A stretch of DNA of 57,055 nt, from the NCBI GenBank assembly GCA_017517745.1, contig JAFWYJ010000003.1, positions 1 through 57,055 on the forward strand, given 5' to 3'. Numbering within the stretch: the stretch's first letter is position 1; each line of letters opens with the position of its first letter. The translations under genes were made by a program, and so were the position numbers. Below, in pieces: positions 33,660 through 40,818 of this stretch. The notes under the pieces were generated by a model, which was not told the DNA's origin, ran no database searches, and saw nothing but the letters and a program-made list of their open reading frames with translations. Origin of the DNA: Clostridia bacterium. Its GTDB lineage: Bacteria > Bacillota > Clostridia > Oscillospirales > CAG-272.

Positions 33660-34664
33660 ATGTCAAAGCTTATGATTCCCGAAGGATACAAATCCTTTCT
33701 CTCGCTTCGTCAAACCGAATACGCCATCAAAAAGGTGAAGGATTTTTTTGAGAGAGATCTCTCCACACAACTCAATCTGATCCGCGTATCCGCACCCTTG
33801 TTCGTCGATCCCAACAGCGGTTTGAATGACGATCTGAACGGCGTAGAACGTCCCGTGCGCTTCGACTTGTTTACGGGAGAGGATCTGGAAATTGTGCATT
33901 CGCTTGCAAAATGGAAGCGCTTCGCACTCAAAAAATACGGATTTGAGGTTGGAGAAGGTCTTTACACCGATATGAACGCGATCCGTAGAGACGAAGAGAC
34001 CGACAACATCCATTCGATGTTCGTCGACCAGTGGGACTGGGAGAAGATCATTACGCGGGATCAGCGCAATGAGGAGACGTTGCGAGAGATTGTCAATTGC
34101 ATTTATCAGAGCCTGCGCCATACCGAGAACTATATCGTCAATGAGTATTCCTTCATCGGAAGACTCTTGCCCGAGAAGATCACCTTCATCACCTCGCAGG
34201 AGATGGAGGACCGTTGGCCCGACCTCACGGCAAAGGAGCGCGAATATGCCGCGGCGAAAGAATGCGGCGCGATCTTCTTGATGAAGATTGGTGGAAAGAT
34301 GAAGAGCGGAAAGATTCACGACGGAAGAGCCCCCGACTATGACGATTGGGAGCTGAACGGAGACATCATCGTCTATTATCCCATCCTCGACATCGCGCTG
34401 GAGCTTTCGTCGATGGGTATCCGCGTGGATGAGGATGCCTTGCACCGTCAGCTTGCCGAGCGCGGCTGCACCGAGCGCGAAAGTCTGCCGTTCCACCGTG
34501 CGCTGCTTGACGGTGAGTTGCCTTATACCGTTGGCGGCGGCATTGGACAGTCGCGCATGTGCATGTTCTTCTTGCGCAAGGCACACATCGGAGAGGTGCA
34601 ATCCTCGCATTGGCAGGAAAAGGACATCAATCTTTGTGAGGAAAAGGGCATTCATTTGCTTTGA
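33660..34664 (+). CDS. asnA: Aspartate-ammonia ligase (asparagine synthetase A)
   Basis: Makes asparagine from aspartate, ammonia and ATP; a class II aminoacyl-tRNA-synthetase-like fold. 334 residues, the usual length. Blocks seen: FLSLRQTEYAIKKVKDFFE, LIRVSAPLFVDPNSGLNDDL, NAIRRDEETDNIHSMFVDQW, RLLPEKITFITSQE and GGGIGQSRMCMFFL with the class II motif 3 Arg. A distal hairpin follows. asnS lies 4.8 kb downstream, so two asparagine-related enzymes share the window but not a transcript. Confidence 0.96.
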   Translation: MSKLMIPEGYKSFLSLRQTEYAIKKVKDFFERDLSTQLNLIRVSAPLFVDPNSGLNDDLNGVERPVRFDLFTGEDLEIVHSLAKWKRFALKKYGFEVGEGLYTDMNAIRRDEETDNIHSMFVDQWDWEKIITRDQRNEETLREIVNCIYQSLRHTENYIVNEYSFIGRLLPEKITFITSQEMEDRWPDLTAKEREYAAAKECGAIFLMKIGGKMKSGKIHDGRAPDYDDWELNGDIIVYYPILDIALELSSMGIRVDEDALHRQLAERGCTERESLPFHRALLDGELPYTVGGGIGQSRMCMFFLRKAHIGEVQSSHWQEKDINLCEEKGIHLL

Positions 34665-34753: not shown

Positions 34754-35830
34754 ATGCGGCTTGTTCGAAGAGTTTTTTGTTGCTTTCTGGCAATCTTGAC
34801 AATCTGTCTTTGTCTGGTATCCTGTCAAACCGAAGAGACGCCTTCGGCATCGTCGATATCCTGCCGATCGTTGACTTGGGGAGTCGGAGGTAAATTGCCC
34901 GAGGCGAAGGATTTTGTCGAATCGATGCCGGACGGCTATACGGTGAAATTTGCCGAGAATTATGCATTCTCGAATTTGGGGACCTACTCGCTCAGCCTGG
35001 TCTTTTCAGATGAACGCGGAAAGGAGACGGTGCGAGAGGTTGAGCTGCGGCTGATCCTTGATGAGCAGCCCCCGTCACTCACGGGTGTTTCGGATCTCTC
35101 GGTTTGTGTGGGAGACGGCATTTCTTATCGTGCCGGCGTTGAGGCGAAGGACAATTGCGACGCTCCCGTCACGCTGAAGATCGATTCCTCTGCGGTGAAT
35201 ACCGCTGCGGAGGGACAATATCCCGTCGTTTATACCGCGACCGACGGGGCAGGGAATGTCACCACCGTCGCCGTGACCGTTTACGTCTATCTGCAGGCGG
35301 TCACCGAAGAGATGCTTTGGGTGGCAATCGACCGCTTGATCACTGCCAATATTCCTTCGGAGGGGAGTGCCGAAAAGCAGGTGCGCGCGATCTATCAGTA
35401 CGTTTACGATTCGATCAAATACACCAGCCATTCGGACAAGAGCGATTGGGTTCGTGCCGCTTACGAGGGAATTCGCACGGGACAGGGAGATTGCTATACC
35501 TATTTTGCGCTTTCCAAGGCGTTTCTGACGCGGCTGGGCATCGAGCACATGGACGTTCAGCGCACGAAGGGGATTGTGACGGAGCGTCATTATTGGAACT
35601 ACGTCAATATTGGAACGCAAGACGCGCCCCGCTGGTATCATTTGGATGCCTGCCACATTCTCGGAGAGCCAAAGCCCTTCGGATGCCTTTTGACCGACGC
35701 ACAGATCGCGGCGTTCAGCGCACAGAGAACCGATTCCGACGGTGTTTCGAATTATTTTTACGCCTATGATAGTGCGGCGTATCCCACGAGCGACACCAAG
35801 ATCATCACCTCCACTTTTTACGACGACTGA
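34754..35830 (+). CDS. Exported lipoprotein with Ig-like and transglutaminase-like domains
   Basis: A 358-residue predicted lipoprotein. The signal peptide ends in LVSC with lipidated Cys24. Residues ~95-180 form a DUF5011-type immunoglobulin-like domain (PPSLTGVSDLSVCVGDGISY, then YPVVYTATDGAGNVTTVAV). Residues ~185-345 are a transglutaminase/protease-like domain with catalytic Cys in GQGDCYTYF, His in ERHYWNYVNI and Asp in WYHLDACHI. Members act as cysteine peptidases or acyltransferases on the cell surface; the substrate is unknown. AAGGAAGG lies two to three bases before ATG at 34754. It is first of four tightly spaced genes, 17 bases before an adenylation enzyme. Confidence 0.82.
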   Translation: MRLVRRVFCCFLAILTICLCLVSCQTEETPSASSISCRSLTWGVGGKLPEAKDFVESMPDGYTVKFAENYAFSNLGTYSLSLVFSDERGKETVREVELRLILDEQPPSLTGVSDLSVCVGDGISYRAGVEAKDNCDAPVTLKIDSSAVNTAAEGQYPVVYTATDGAGNVTTVAVTVYVYLQAVTEEMLWVAIDRLITANIPSEGSAEKQVRAIYQYVYDSIKYTSHSDKSDWVRAAYEGIRTGQGDCYTYFALSKAFLTRLGIEHMDVQRTKGIVTERHYWNYVNIGTQDAPRWYHLDACHILGEPKPFGCLLTDAQIAAFSAQRTDSDGVSNYFYAYDSAAYPTSDTKIITSTFYDD

Positions 35831-35847
35831 CGAGGGAGGGACAGGCT

Positions 35848-37374
35848 ATGCAAACCAATATTTTGGAATATCTGGAGGCGACCGCACCGCGTGTCCCTTC
35901 CAAGATCGCCTACTCGGACGGAAGCTACCACATGTGCTTTTCCGAGCTTTTCGACTCCTCGCGCCGTCTTGGCAGCTCGCTTTTGCGTCGCGGATTTTCG
36001 GGCGAGCCGATCGCGATCCTCATGACGAAGCACCCCCGACAGATCGCAGCGTTTTACGGCTGTGTTTATGCGGGATGCTATTACGCGCCGCTCGATACCG
36101 ATATGCCTCCGCATCGCATGGAGGTCATTCTCGAGAGCGTTGGCGCGCGTGCGGTGATCGTTGACGAAAAAGGAGAAAAACTGATTTCCAAGCTGAATTT
36201 CGGCGGCGAAATTTTACGATATGACACGCTTTCATCGGAAGATGCCGATGATCTTGCGCTGCGTGCGGTCAGAGAGAGACAGATCGACACCGATCCGATC
36301 TATATCGTTTTTACATCCGGATCCACGGGCATTCCCAAGGGCGTCATCGCCTGCCATCGCTCGGTGATCGATTACGTCGAGACACTCTGCGATGCACTCG
36401 GATTTTCCGAGGATACGGTCTTTGCAAACCAAACGCCGCTCTTTTTCGACGCGCCTCTCAAGGAGCTGATGCCGGTCATCAAGTTCGGCGCGACGGCGTA
36501 TCTCGTCCCCAAGCAGCTCTTCATGTTTCCCATGAAGCTCTGCGATTTCCTCAACGAGCATCGCGTCAACACGGTTTGTTGGGTGGTTTCGGCACTGACC
36601 ATGATCTCCTCACTCGGCGTGCTGGAGAAGAATCCGCCGCGCTATCTGACCACCGTCGCGTTTGGCAGTGAAGTTTTTCCGATCCGTCAGTATGAGCTTT
36701 GGAGATCGGCGCTTCCGACGGCAAAGTTTTTCAATCTTTACGGTCCCACTGAGGCGACGGGCATGTCCTGCTATTGGAAAGCCGACCGCGCCCTGGAGGA
36801 GGGGGAGGCGATTCCCGTGGGACGCCCCTTCCGCAATACAGACCTTTTGCTGATCACCGAGGACGGACGGCGCGCCGAGGCAGGGGAGACGGGAGAGATC
36901 TATCTGCGCGGCACCTGTGTGACGCACGGATACTATCGCAACCCCGAAAAGACCGCCGAGGCGTTCGTGCAAAATCCCTTGCACAATCATTATCCCGAGA
37001 CGGTTTACCGCACGGGCGATCTGGCGTATTACAACAAGCACGGGGAATTGGTGTTTGTCTCGCGCAAGGATGCGCAGATCAAGCACATGGGACATCGCAT
37101 CGAGCTGGGTGAGATCGAAGCCGCGACCGCGCTTTGTCCCGAGATCTTGCGCGCGTGTTGCGTATATGACGGAGAAAATAAGCGCATTTTATTATATTAT
37201 ACGGGTGAGGTGAGCGGCGAGGCTTTGATCTCTTTTCTCAAGGGTTATCTGCCGCGCTACATGATCCCCGCTGAGTGTGTCCGACTTTCTCAAATGCCCC
37301 TGACCCCCAACGGCAAGCTTGACCGCAAGCGGTTGGCAAGCGGGGTGGACATTCCCAAAATGATAGAAAAATAA
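35848..37374 (+). CDS. Stand-alone amino-acid adenylation enzyme (ANL superfamily, NRPS A-domain/DltA-like)
   Basis: A 508-residue AMP-forming enzyme that should activate a carboxylic acid, most likely an amino acid. The core motifs are complete: A3 IVFTSGSTGIPKGV, A4 FFDAPLKEL with the Asp that binds an alpha-amino group, A5 FNLYGPTEAT, A7 YRTGDLAYY, A8 RKDAQIKHMGHRIELGEIE and A10 PLTPNGKLDRKRL with the catalytic Lys. No condensation, thiolation or thioesterase domain follows, and no carrier protein is encoded in the operon. GGGAGGGAC precedes ATG. The next gene, 16 bases on, is a DUF2156-GNAT fusion, the likely acceptor-side partner (inference). DltA for teichoic acids is possible but dltBCD are absent here. 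Confidence 0.83.
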   Translation: MQTNILEYLEATAPRVPSKIAYSDGSYHMCFSELFDSSRRLGSSLLRRGFSGEPIAILMTKHPRQIAAFYGCVYAGCYYAPLDTDMPPHRMEVILESVGARAVIVDEKGEKLISKLNFGGEILRYDTLSSEDADDLALRAVRERQIDTDPIYIVFTSGSTGIPKGVIACHRSVIDYVETLCDALGFSEDTVFANQTPLFFDAPLKELMPVIKFGATAYLVPKQLFMFPMKLCDFLNEHRVNTVCWVVSALTMISSLGVLEKNPPRYLTTVAFGSEVFPIRQYELWRSALPTAKFFNLYGPTEATGMSCYWKADRALEEGEAIPVGRPFRNTDLLLITEDGRRAEAGETGEIYLRGTCVTHGYYRNPEKTAEAFVQNPLHNHYPETVYRTGDLAYYNKHGELVFVSRKDAQIKHMGHRIELGEIEAATALCPEILRACCVYDGENKRILLYYTGEVSGEALISFLKGYLPRYMIPAECVRLSQMPLTPNGKLDRKRLASGVDIPKMIEK

Positions 37375-37390
37375 GGAAAGATTGATTGTT

Positions 37391-38824
37391 ATGATCATCG
37401 AACAGCTTCCGCAAACCAAGACTCTGGAATTTGAGCGAGCTGAAAAATTCGGCTTGGAAAGAATCGCGGCGTATTACAGAGACTGCGACTACAATATTTG
37501 CGAATATTCGCTCGGCATCAAGCTGATGTGCGCCTCTCTTTACCGCTACCGTTTTGCCGAGGTGGCAGGATGCCTGATCTGCCGCGACGAATATGAGGGG
37601 ATCGTCTATTTTGATTATCCCGTCGTCGGTCCCGACGGAGATCTCGAGGCGGCGCTCTCTGCCATCGAGACCTACTGTATGGAGAAGGACATTCCTCTGC
37701 GCTACACCACGCTCCCGCCGTCCGCACTCGGGCTTTTGACCGCGCGCTACGACGGAGTGCGCCTGCGCAAGACCTACGAGTGCCGCGATTATTGCTACCG
37801 CACCGAGGAGATCGTGGAATTTGCCGGCAAAAAGTACGCCGGACAGCGCAACCACGTCCGCCGCTTCTATCGCCAATATCCAAACGCCGTTTTTCGCAAG
37901 ATGACCGCGCGGGATATCCCCGCGCTCGAGGTATTTGCCAACCGCTTCGACGCCACCTTCCAAAAGCGCGGCGAAGACGCGGTGAACGAGAGAGAAAAGG
38001 CGTTTGCCATGCTTCGCATGGATCGCGACGATCTGTTTCGCATCGGATGCATGGAGCTGGACGGAGAGATCATCGGCGTGGCGTTGGGAGAGCGGTGCGG
38101 GAATGTTCTTTTGGAACACGTCGAAAAGGCGTTGTCCTCCGAATACGAGGGCCTTTATCCCGCGCTTTTTCAGGCGTTTGTCGCAACTTTTGGAAGTGAT
38201 TGCACCTACGTCAACCGCGAGGACGATGCCGCCGACCGAGGACTCAGAACCTCCAAAATGCAATATCATCCTGCGCATATCTCGCAAAAATACGATATGG
38301 ACGTGCTCAATCTCCTTGCCTTTTGGGACGAGATTCCGACCATTGAGACCGACCGCCTCCGCTTGACCGCCATTGAGACGGCGGATGCCGAGGCCTATCG
38401 TATGCTTTGCACCGATGACGCGCACAACCGCTATTGGGGCTATGATTACCGCACCGATCTGGGAGACGCGAGTGCCGACGGGACCTATTTCGTCAACGTC
38501 GCACGCGCCGATTTTGAAGAGAAAAGAACCCTGAATTTTGCCATCCGCGCGGACGGGGAATTCGTGGGAGAGACGGTGCTGTACCGCTTCGACAATCGCG
38601 GCGGCGTTGAGCTTGGTGTGCGGATCTTGCCCGCCTTTTTGCGCCGCGGCTACGGCAAGGAAGCCTTTGAAGCAACTGCAAATTGGGCAATTTACACGCT
38701 GGGTGCCGAACGCGTGGTGGCAAAGTGCTTCCGCGAAAACGCGGCGTCGGTTGCCATGCTCTCGTCCGTGATGCGACAGATCGATGCCGATGAAACCATG
38801 TTGTATTTTGAAAAACGGGTATAA
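37391..38824 (+). CDS. DUF2156 (LPG-synthase-like) and GNAT acyltransferase fusion
   Basis: A 477-residue two-domain transferase. Residues ~1-300 match DUF2156, the catalytic domain of phosphatidylglycerol lysyltransferases: KKYAGQRNHVRRF, and YVNREDDAADRGLRTSKMQY close to the family signature. Residues ~308-477 are a RimJ/RimL-type GNAT domain: IETDRLRLTAIETADAEA, LGVRILPAFLRRGYGKEAFE with the acetyl-CoA loop. No membrane flippase domain is present, so it is probably cytoplasmic. DUF2156 proteins use activated aminoacyl groups, which pairs logically with the adenylation enzyme just upstream. ATG at 37391 follows AAGGAAAG; the upstream TTG at 37382 is less likely. Confidence 0.8.
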   Translation: MIIEQLPQTKTLEFERAEKFGLERIAAYYRDCDYNICEYSLGIKLMCASLYRYRFAEVAGCLICRDEYEGIVYFDYPVVGPDGDLEAALSAIETYCMEKDIPLRYTTLPPSALGLLTARYDGVRLRKTYECRDYCYRTEEIVEFAGKKYAGQRNHVRRFYRQYPNAVFRKMTARDIPALEVFANRFDATFQKRGEDAVNEREKAFAMLRMDRDDLFRIGCMELDGEIIGVALGERCGNVLLEHVEKALSSEYEGLYPALFQAFVATFGSDCTYVNREDDAADRGLRTSKMQYHPAHISQKYDMDVLNLLAFWDEIPTIETDRLRLTAIETADAEAYRMLCTDDAHNRYWGYDYRTDLGDASADGTYFVNVARADFEEKRTLNFAIRADGEFVGETVLYRFDNRGGVELGVRILPAFLRRGYGKEAFEATANWAIYTLGAERVVAKCFRENAASVAMLSSVMRQIDADETMLYFEKRV

Positions 38825-38837
38825 GAAAGGCATTGCT

Positions 38838-39275
38838 ATGATGGATTATTCTCAATATGAAGAAATTATAAATCGTAAAGCAACGGTATTTCTTGTAATA
38901 ATAGCACTTCTATTTATTGTATGTGCGGTTCTTATTTGGATGATAATAAGAGAGTTCAAGGAGCCTAAGACCAAGGATGCAAGAATCGCTGATCGCATTT
39001 GGCTTGTATTATCAAGTGTAATCGCGTGTTTGTCGGTGGTGTTTTTTATGGCAACCGTTTATGCAAGAAATTATGATATTCGCAATCAAGCATACCTTAC
39101 CTATGAGGGAAAAATTGAAATCGTAAATAAAAAATCCGGCGCAAACGTATTTATTTTCAATGATAAAAGAAAGATGCTGGATGCCGTACGTTGCGATGTT
39201 GAGGACGGGATTTATACCGGTCGTGTGATTTATTCCCAAAAAACAAAAATTGCTTTTGAAATTGTTTTGGATTGA
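38838..39275 (+). CDS. Small membrane protein of unknown function
   Basis: 145 residues, no family recognised. Two hydrophobic segments (~16-36 and ~55-75) surround a short basic loop, then a polar domain (~80-145, beta-rich in appearance) that should lie outside the membrane or in the cytoplasm depending on topology. AAGG is eight bases before ATG-ATG at 38838. It is the fourth gene of the operon, 13 bases behind the DUF2156-GNAT fusion. Its base composition is markedly more AT-rich than the three genes before it, suggesting separate acquisition. Confidence 0.65.
   Translation: MMDYSQYEEIINRKATVFLVIIALLFIVCAVLIWMIIREFKEPKTKDARIADRIWLVLSSVIACLSVVFFMATVYARNYDIRNQAYLTYEGKIEIVNKKSGANVFIFNDKRKMLDAVRCDVEDGIYTGRVIYSQKTKIAFEIVLD

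Positions 39276-39423: not shown

Positions 39424-40818
<1,395 letters not shown>

What the first reader, a model, noticed from the sequence alone, without database searches (positions are those of the whole stretch)
34754..39275. Candidate undescribed system: transglutaminase lipoprotein, carrier-less adenylation enzyme, DUF2156-GNAT fusion, membrane protein
Four genes run in one direction with gaps of 17, 16 and 13 bases. The adenylation enzyme has all core motifs and the amino-acid-binding Asp, but no thiolation or condensation domain follows and no carrier protein gene is present. The next gene fuses an LPG-synthase-type DUF2156 domain with a GNAT domain, two acyl-transfer folds. Known family chemistry suggests an amino acid is activated and then transferred, and perhaps N-acylated, onto a lipid, peptide or surface acceptor, with the exported transglutaminase-like lipoprotein and the small membrane protein acting at the envelope. 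That the four genes form one pathway is inference.
Basis: partly seen in the sequence, partly recalled or inferred. Interest (0 to 1): 0.78.

Follow-up and report, generated by a model that had tools for sequence, protein, structure and literature searches.

The report
Half of a split envelope-decorating pathway
The genes seen here are one half of a pathway of gut Clostridia that appears to load an amino acid onto a small carrier protein and hand it across the membrane to a cell-surface polymer; the carrier and transfer genes sit elsewhere in the same genome, and the amino acid looks more likely acidic than the usual D-alanine.

Summary
The four genes are real; the four-gene system is not. The transglutaminase-like lipoprotein (TG) and adenylation enzyme (A) are half of a cassette. 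Carrier protein, MBOAT, SGNH-like protein and small lipoprotein lie on another contig of the same genome. In 80 loci fetched with the SGNH-like protein, 69 are not genus-like; 49 of these have 6.5 kb upstream, and 46 of 49 hold TG-A-carrier-MBOAT-SGNH in order on one strand. DUF2156-GNAT follows A in only 3 of 23 informative genus loci and also occurs without A.

Most likely a Dlt-like pathway: A charges the carrier, the MBOAT moves the aminoacyl group to its own C-terminal FIYxxF tyrosine, the SGNH-like protein passes it to an envelope polymer. Unlike Dlt: fused shuttle motif, Cys where SGNH proteins have Ser, extra lipoproteins, all tested Dlt models missed. The A pocket reads DAKW(V/I)FLG(M/V) in 58 of 58, Lys at 239 as in a published Glu/Asp code, and 24 of 55 cassettes carry an Asp/Glu-type racemase, so an acidic, perhaps D-, amino acid is the leading guess. 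Substrate, acceptor and each chemical step are inferred. No structure could be predicted (server busy).

The parts
34754..35830 (+). Transglutaminase-like lipoprotein (TG): lipobox LVSC (read by eye), Ig-like domain, Transglut_core with Cys247-His279-Asp298; core member of the cassette
   Evidence: triad conserved in 56 of 56 aligned TG proteins of at least 280 aa; upstream of A in other Clostridia
35848..37374 (+). Stand-alone amino-acid adenylation enzyme (A), pocket code DAKWVFLGM plus Lys490; expected to charge a carrier protein encoded elsewhere in the genome
   Evidence: code in 58 of 58 proteins; carrier at G000:C9
37391..38824 (+). DUF2156 (LPG_synthase_C) fused to a GNAT domain; lineage-specific neighbour of A, not part of the conserved cassette
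38838..39275 (+). Small membrane protein of unknown family; BLAST labelled no homologue in the genus A and carrier neighbourhoods
   Evidence: no room for it between DUF2156-GNAT and asnS in G004
33660..34664 (+). asnA, aspartate-ammonia ligase: flank, probably not part of the pathway
   Evidence: TIGR00669 337.9 bits, cut-off 292.8; asnA and asnS are direct neighbours in G018 and G031, which lack TG and A
39424..40818 (+). asnS, asparagine-tRNA ligase: flank
   Evidence: NF003037 673.8 bits, cut-off 414

Best explanation
TG and A are half of a split, carrier-dependent MBOAT/SGNH aminoacylation pathway of the Dlt type. Steps: (1) A adenylates an amino acid and loads it onto the 75-aa carrier encoded on contig C9. 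(2) The MBOAT transfers the aminoacyl group from the carrier to the tyrosine of its own C-terminal FIYNQF motif, outside the membrane. (3) The SGNH-like protein takes it on Cys62 (GDCE motif) and passes it to an envelope polymer. (4) TG and the small lipoprotein act at the surface in an unknown way. The substrate is more likely acidic (Asp, Glu or an analogue), perhaps the D-isomer, than D-Ala. Shown here: gene order, co-occurrence, families and conserved motifs. Inferred: every chemical step, the substrate and the acceptor. DUF2156-GNAT and the small membrane protein are lineage additions.
For: The genome has a DltC-like carrier at G000:C9:37244-37468 (NF003464 39.5 bits). It lies beside an MBOAT (PF03062 65.6 bits; TIGR04091 DltB 141 bits; DltB structures 6bug and 8jem at E about 5e-25), an SGNH-like protein and a lipoprotein. 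In 46 of 49 non-genus-like loci with at least 6.5 kb upstream, TG-A-CP-MBOAT-SGNH stand in that order on one strand; median gaps over the non-genus-like loci are 20 (A-CP), 9.5 (CP-MBOAT) and 12 (MBOAT-SGNH) bases, using longest ORFs. In 295 genomes of the order, high-scoring A (687 bits or more) occurs in 15 genomes, all among the 16 with high-scoring SGNH (438 bits or more) (limits set at the gap in scores after seeing them). In G253, of the same family, the cassette is joined; in G327 it is split at another point (TG-A-CP-MBOAT on one contig, SGNH-lipoprotein on another). MBOAT His307 and His364 are 72 of 72; the C-terminus is exactly FIYxxF in 69 of 72 with 3 near forms. SGNH GDCE, Asp289 and His293 are 81 of 81, and GDCE is in 8 of 8 cassettes read from the whole-genome search, which used no pattern. 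A code DAKW(V/I)FLG(M/V) in 58 of 58; a paper passage gives DAKDLGVV for Glu/Asp. A TIGR00035 racemase type is in 24 of 55 loci with TG and A and, at 40-45% identity and another place, in 22 of 35 genus genomes, none of them among the seven without cassette genes.
Against: Within the genus the seven genomes without the cassette form one clade, so that co-occurrence is one event and the Fisher values are overstated. The 80 loci were found with peptide patterns, one of them over GDCEVY, so the 81 of 81 for Cys is partly by selection; several of these loci lie on the same contigs as genomes (equal contig lengths), so the two sets overlap. L179, a locus with TG, CP, MBOAT, SGNH and lipoprotein, has its nearest A on the other strand, 37% identical, with code IARWVFQAS, without Asp235 or Lys239; my identity filter left it, L203 (25%) and two short fragments out of the 58. 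The racemase is missing from 31 of 55 loci and from 6 of 28 genus genomes with cassette genes. Lys239 also occurs in sister cassettes with a PLP decarboxylase, and Trp278, Phe301 and Leu322 are shared by sisters with other codes, so the code does not prove Asp or Glu. The residue mapping rests on recalled GrsA numbering, and the list in the cited passage gives one code two different substrates. The SGNH fold rests on motifs and weak GDSL hits; Asp289 and His293 are one residue further apart than the usual DxxH. G262 has the SGNH but no A at E <= 1e-100. A DltA control for the pocket was not obtained.
Confidence: 0.78

Rival explanations
1. An ordinary Dlt system whose genes have been split: A is DltA, the amino acid is D-alanine, the acceptor is (lipo)teichoic acid.
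For: The parts resemble Dlt parts: DltA TIGR01734 251 bits, DltC 39.5 bits, DltB TIGR04091 141 bits. A is the best of five AMP-binding matches in the genome (the other four were not tested as DltA). The genome has one PF00884 protein, not tested further, that could be an LTA-synthase-like enzyme.
Against: All three lie far below the curated cut-offs (560, 68 and 375 bits). No DltD model hit. The A pocket has Lys at 239 in 58 of 58. The SGNH-like protein has Cys, not Ser. The linked racemase is of the Asp/Glu type.
Confidence: 0.17
2. One reading: A plus DUF2156-GNAT (and the small membrane protein) transfer an amino acid to a lipid or peptide without a carrier.
For: A and DUF2156-GNAT are adjacent with short gaps in G000, G004 and G020. 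G020 is distant from the other two in the asnS tree, and there the pair stays together although TG and asnS lie on other contigs.
Against: Only 3 of 23 informative A loci in the genus have it; G034, the sister of G020, does not. Full-length fusions also occur in G018 and G013, which lack A, and in G021, where it lies on another contig than A. In the 12 DUF2156 neighbourhoods fetched outside the genus, BLAST found no TG and no carrier, and only one distant A-like ORF (22%, L043). A carrier is present in trans.
Confidence: 0.05
3. A mixed model, compatible with the best explanation: the cassette works as proposed, and in a few species DUF2156-GNAT is a second user of the charged carrier or the aminoacyl-AMP, making a side product such as an aminoacylated lipid.
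For: A-DUF2156-GNAT adjacency in two distant branches of the genus.
Against: No direct evidence; LPG-synthase relatives use aminoacyl-tRNA (recalled).
Confidence: 0.15

Closest known systems
Dlt pathway (DltA, DltB, DltC, DltD, DltX): D-alanylation of teichoic acids
   Same: Adenylation enzyme, small carrier, MBOAT, extracytoplasmic SGNH-type partner
   Different: FIYxxF motif fused to the MBOAT instead of on DltX; Cys in place of Ser; no DltD model hit; A pocket with Lys239; extra TG and small lipoprotein; Asp/Glu-type racemase in many loci; below the DltA, DltB and DltC cut-offs
PatA/PatB-type MBOAT-SGNH acyltransferases (PMC12148441, passages seen)
   Same: MBOAT with fused C-terminal FXYXXF shuttle motif and a separate SGNH protein
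   Different: By those passages these pathways use acyl-CoA and lack a carrier; here a carrier and an adenylation enzyme are in the cassette
AlmEFG of Vibrio cholerae (glycine onto lipid A; recalled, not tested)
   Same: Stand-alone adenylation enzyme plus carrier plus envelope transferase
   Different: The transferase there is not an MBOAT/SGNH pair (recalled)
2HQY, a DUF2156 protein of known structure
   Same: The DUF2156 part of the window fusion matches it at E 1.6e-15
   Different: The 305-aa chain is matched only by the DUF2156 part; the GNAT part matches other chains

Membership tests
Dlt (D-alanylation) system | DltA: equivalog TIGR01734, cut-off 559.85 | tested here: not met
   251.3 bits; 281.9 for the Mobilitalea A
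Dlt (D-alanylation) system | DltC: TIGR01688 cut-off 52.35 or NF003464 cut-off 68 | tested here: not met
   27.1 and 39.5 bits; a PP-binding carrier is nevertheless present (PF00550 30 bits, cut-off 20.8)
Dlt (D-alanylation) system | DltB: TIGR04091, cut-off 375 | tested here: not met
   141.4 bits; MBOAT PF03062 is met at 65.6 bits, cut-off 27
Dlt (D-alanylation) system | DltD family protein with catalytic Ser | tested here: not met
   No DltD model among the hits; GDCE with Cys in 81 of 81, partly by selection, and 8 of 8 unselected
Dlt (D-alanylation) system | Separate DltX microprotein with FXYXXF | not tested
   No search for a separate microprotein was made; the motif is at the MBOAT C-terminus
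Dlt (D-alanylation) system | Substrate D-Ala, acceptor teichoic acid | not testable with these tools
   Pocket code argues against D-Ala; acceptor unknown
Bacterial MBOAT-SGNH acyltransferase pair | MBOAT with conserved His and C-terminal FXYXXF | tested here: met
   His307 and His364 72 of 72; exact FIYxxF 69 of 72, 3 near forms
Bacterial MBOAT-SGNH acyltransferase pair | SGNH-family partner with Ser-Asp-His | tested here: inconclusive
   Asp and His present, spacing one longer, Cys for Ser; PF13472 20.2 bits, below cut-off 32.9; no structure obtained (11 busy answers)
Amino-acid adenylation enzyme | TIGR01733 over cut-off, Asp235 and Lys517 equivalents | tested here: met
   325.2 bits, cut-off 317.4; D201 and K490 58 of 58. 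The Mobilitalea A is just under, 310.1
Glu/Asp-activating adenylation enzyme | Pocket code DAKDLGVV | tested here: inconclusive
   First three positions DAK in 58 of 58; the other positions differ from the code in PMC10548584 (passage)
Transglutaminase-like superfamily | PF01841 over cut-off and Cys-His-Asp | tested here: met
   34.3 bits, cut-off 23; triad 56 of 56

The most novel reading that the evidence does not exclude
A clostridial envelope pathway that decorates a surface polymer with an acidic D-amino acid (D-Asp, D-Glu or a cysteate-like one) through a carrier protein, an MBOAT with a built-in tyrosine shuttle and a cysteine-based SGNH transferase that would form a thioester intermediate, with a transglutaminase-like lipoprotein acting on the product.
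Probability: 0.32. Interest if true: 0.78.

Novelty: new variant of a known kind. Interest (0 to 1): 0.62.

Why it matters
In the passages seen of PMC12148441, Dlt is the one MBOAT/SGNH pathway said to use a carrier protein. A second one, found here in loci labelled Lachnospiraceae, Oscillospiraceae and other gut Clostridia and apparently built for a different amino acid, would mean that a class of surface chemistry in gut bacteria has been overlooked or filed under dlt. Split genes such as the A enzyme here are easily taken for DltA or for orphan peptide-synthetase parts.

Tried and rejected
Carrier-less adenylation: rejected; a 75-aa carrier is in the genome and stands between A and the MBOAT in other families. 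asnA/asnS as pathway genes: thought unlikely; in the cassette-less clade they are direct neighbours in G018 and G031, while G013, G028 and G016 have another gene upstream of asnS and G030 and G006 show too little. DUF2156-GNAT as a core member: rejected. The genus Fisher tests looked strong (A-TG p 5e-6), but an asnS tree of 27 genomes puts the seven cassette-less genomes in one clade, so I count them as one event.

Rows dropped or handled: 'TG present' in G027 is a paralogue-level match and in G033 fragments. Six genomes were counted as DUF2156-GNAT fusion; G028 (cut at a contig end) and G010 (GNAT part only) were not. In one search my gene caller missed A in L106 and L116, and in L119 A runs to the contig edge; these three of 26 are left out of the 23. 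In one carrier locus (L134, G010) a 600-aa ORF upstream was labelled A by BLAST at E 1e-4; one search did not list it at 1e-20. The A code set leaves out L179, L203 and two fragments. 'Genus-like' for 11 of the 80 is my reading from identity and contig length; none of the 11 holds A, but only 4 have 6.5 kb upstream. A DltA control for the pocket code was sought in plasmids (60 of 704 records listed); none listed was annotated as DltA, so the DltA comparison is from recall. Structure prediction of the SGNH-like protein was asked 11 times and always answered busy, so no fold search was run. Papers: listings only; passages of PMC10548584, PMC13231372 (not used) and PMC12148441. The Dlt acyl-shuttle paper of 2023 is not held; what I say of it is recall and what PMC12148441 cites. 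Odds changed in this revision: best explanation 0.82 to 0.78 and novel case 0.35 to 0.32, because of the pattern selection for GDCE and the divergent A of L179; the ordinary-Dlt rival went from 0.15 to 0.17.
Full report
WHAT IS IN THE WINDOW. They are a lipoprotein with an Ig-like and a transglutaminase core domain (TG), an amino-acid adenylation enzyme (A), a DUF2156-GNAT fusion and a small membrane protein without a known family. The flanks are asnA and asnS. The window is a whole contig, C13, of a 2.17 Mb assembly rated 97% complete.

THE CARRIER IS ELSEWHERE. The genome has two carrier proteins over the Pfam cut-off: one of 96 aa on C43 and one of 75 aa on C9 next to thrS. The 75-aa carrier is most like DltC among the NCBIfam models, but below the cut-offs. 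It is followed by a 529-aa MBOAT protein most like DltB (TIGR04091 141 bits, cut-off 375; DltB structures at E about 5e-25), a 346-aa protein with weak GDSL similarity, and a small lipoprotein.

THE TWO LOCI BELONG TOGETHER. In 35 genomes of the genus A is found in 26, the carrier in 24, the SGNH-like protein in 26 and TG in 28. All four are found in 22 genomes and none in 7. The seven negatives are one clade in an asnS tree of 27 genomes, so this alone is weak. Eleven of the 80 loci are genus-like; none holds A, though only four have enough upstream sequence to tell. Of the other 69, 49 have at least 6.5 kb upstream, and 46 of these 49 hold TG-A-CP-MBOAT-SGNH in that order on one strand, 41 with the small lipoprotein as well. 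The three exceptions are two loci where BLAST labelled only SGNH and lipoprotein, one of them (L214) the split G327 contig by its length, and L179, which has a divergent A on the other strand. Bearers of the joined form include Mobilitalea sibirica DSM 26468 and Pseudoflavonifractor sp. 60, and MAGs named Mediterraneibacter, Blautia and Lachnospiraceae. In 295 genomes of the window's order the high-scoring A group (687 bits and more; the next is 547) has 15 genomes and the high-scoring SGNH group (438 bits and more; the next is 193) has 16, with 15 shared. These limits were set after seeing the gap, and some of these contigs are also among the 80 loci. In the window's own family G253 has the joined form and G327 a form split at another point.

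DUF2156-GNAT. In the genus it follows A in G000, G004 and G020, of 23 informative A loci. Full-length fusions occur in six genomes, two of them without A (association with A p 0.64). G020 is far from G000 and G004 in the asnS tree and keeps the A-fusion pair although TG and asnS are on other contigs, so a local functional tie remains possible; its sister G034 lacks the fusion after A. In the 12 DUF2156 neighbourhoods fetched outside the genus BLAST found no TG and no carrier, and one distant A-like ORF (22%). The small membrane protein is absent between the fusion and asnS in G004 and no homologue was labelled in the genus neighbourhoods.

HOW IT MOST LIKELY WORKS. Conserved residues fit a carrier-dependent MBOAT/SGNH pathway: MBOAT His307 and His364 in 72 of 72 proteins of at least 420 aa, an exact C-terminal FIYxxF in 69 of 72 with three near forms, carrier Ser31 in 71 of 72, TG Cys-His-Asp in 56 of 56. 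PMC12148441 (passages) describes the FXYXXF tyrosine as an acyl shuttle, on DltX in the Dlt pathway and fused to the MBOAT in pathways that use acyl-CoA and lack a carrier. Here carrier and fused motif occur together. The SGNH-like protein has GDCE in 81 of 81. One of the two search patterns covered that motif, so this is partly selection; but 8 of 8 cassettes taken from the whole-genome profile search also have GDCE, while 6 of 6 sister loci have Ser there (GNSD or GDSE). Asp289 and His293 are invariant in all 38 aligned cassette and sister proteins, one residue further apart than the canonical DxxH.

SUBSTRATE. Using recalled GrsA numbering, the A code is DAKW(V/I)FLG(M/V) with the active-site Lys in 58 of 58 proteins (the window and 57 loci). 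Left out of that set: two short fragments, L203 (25% identical) and L179 (37%, code IARWVFQAS). A paper passage gives DAKDLGVV for a Glu/Asp surfactin domain, although its list gives another code to both Leu and Glu/Asp. Sister A enzymes read SM(S/T/L)WVFLDI or DVKW(I/V)FLCN. In 24 of 55 loci with both TG and A there is a racemase of the Asp/Glu type, 22 of them between TG and A by my position rule; two more loci with it lack TG or A. Two such racemases were scored: TIGR00035 212 and 208 bits (cut-off 93); cysteate racemase model 192 and 189 bits (cut-off 190). In G187 a 35% identical one follows the small lipoprotein. A 40-45% identical racemase lies at another place in 22 of 35 genus genomes, none among the seven without the cassette. 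This favours an acidic, possibly D-, amino acid. Against it: 31 of 55 loci have no racemase in the stretch, six of 28 cassette-bearing genus genomes have none found, L179 differs, and Lys239 also occurs in sister cassettes with a LysA-like decarboxylase.

COMPARISON. It works like Dlt, but the DltA, DltB and DltC models are all missed and no DltD model hits, so I do not file it as Dlt. It shares the fused shuttle motif with Pat-type pairs, but has a carrier and an adenylation enzyme. I judge it a new variant of the MBOAT-SGNH envelope acylation kind. Six searches of the held library (listings seen) showed no paper that describes it by title or abstract start; the 2023 acyl-shuttle paper could not be read and may already list such loci.

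VERDICT. The interesting object is the larger, split cassette.

Noticed in passing
L278, L279, L281, L290 (sister cassettes): Related A-CP-MBOAT-SGNH runs in which BLAST labelled no TG, racemase or small lipoprotein; the A pocket has Ser where the amino-binding Asp should be (code SM(S/T/L)WVFLDI) and SGNH has GNSD, perhaps a substrate without an alpha-amino group.
   Followed up: partly
L280:5883-7085 and L282:5944-7137: Other sister cassettes carry a LysA-like PLP decarboxylase between A and carrier (TIGR01048 172 and 170 bits, below cut-off 298), reminiscent of decarboxylation of a carrier-bound amino acid (BtrK, recalled).
   Followed up: partly
L179:4305-5807 (-): A locus with TG, carrier, MBOAT, SGNH and lipoprotein whose nearest A is on the other strand, 37% identical, with code IARWVFQAS.
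   Followed up: no
L288:9651-11495: An asparagine synthase B (TIGR01536 441 bits, cut-off 267) lies inside one cassette between SGNH and TG.
   Followed up: no
L183:2486-3988 and a similar-looking ORF at L177:4412-6058: ORF between TG and A in two cassettes; in L183 it matches inositol monophosphatase PF00459 (196 bits) with a sub-threshold GDPD match.
   Followed up: no
L315 (G018) and L312 (G031): asnA and asnS are direct neighbours where TG and A are lacking.
   Followed up: yes
NZ_CP054613.1:1725676-1727184 (hit H1): Stretch without a listed gene that encodes an adenylation enzyme 38% identical to the window's A, on a Paenibacillus cellulosilyticus megaplasmid.
   Followed up: no
G000:C9:55982-56872 (L323): Only PF00884 match of the genome, in a 498-aa ORF that could be an LTA-synthase-like enzyme.
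   Followed up: no
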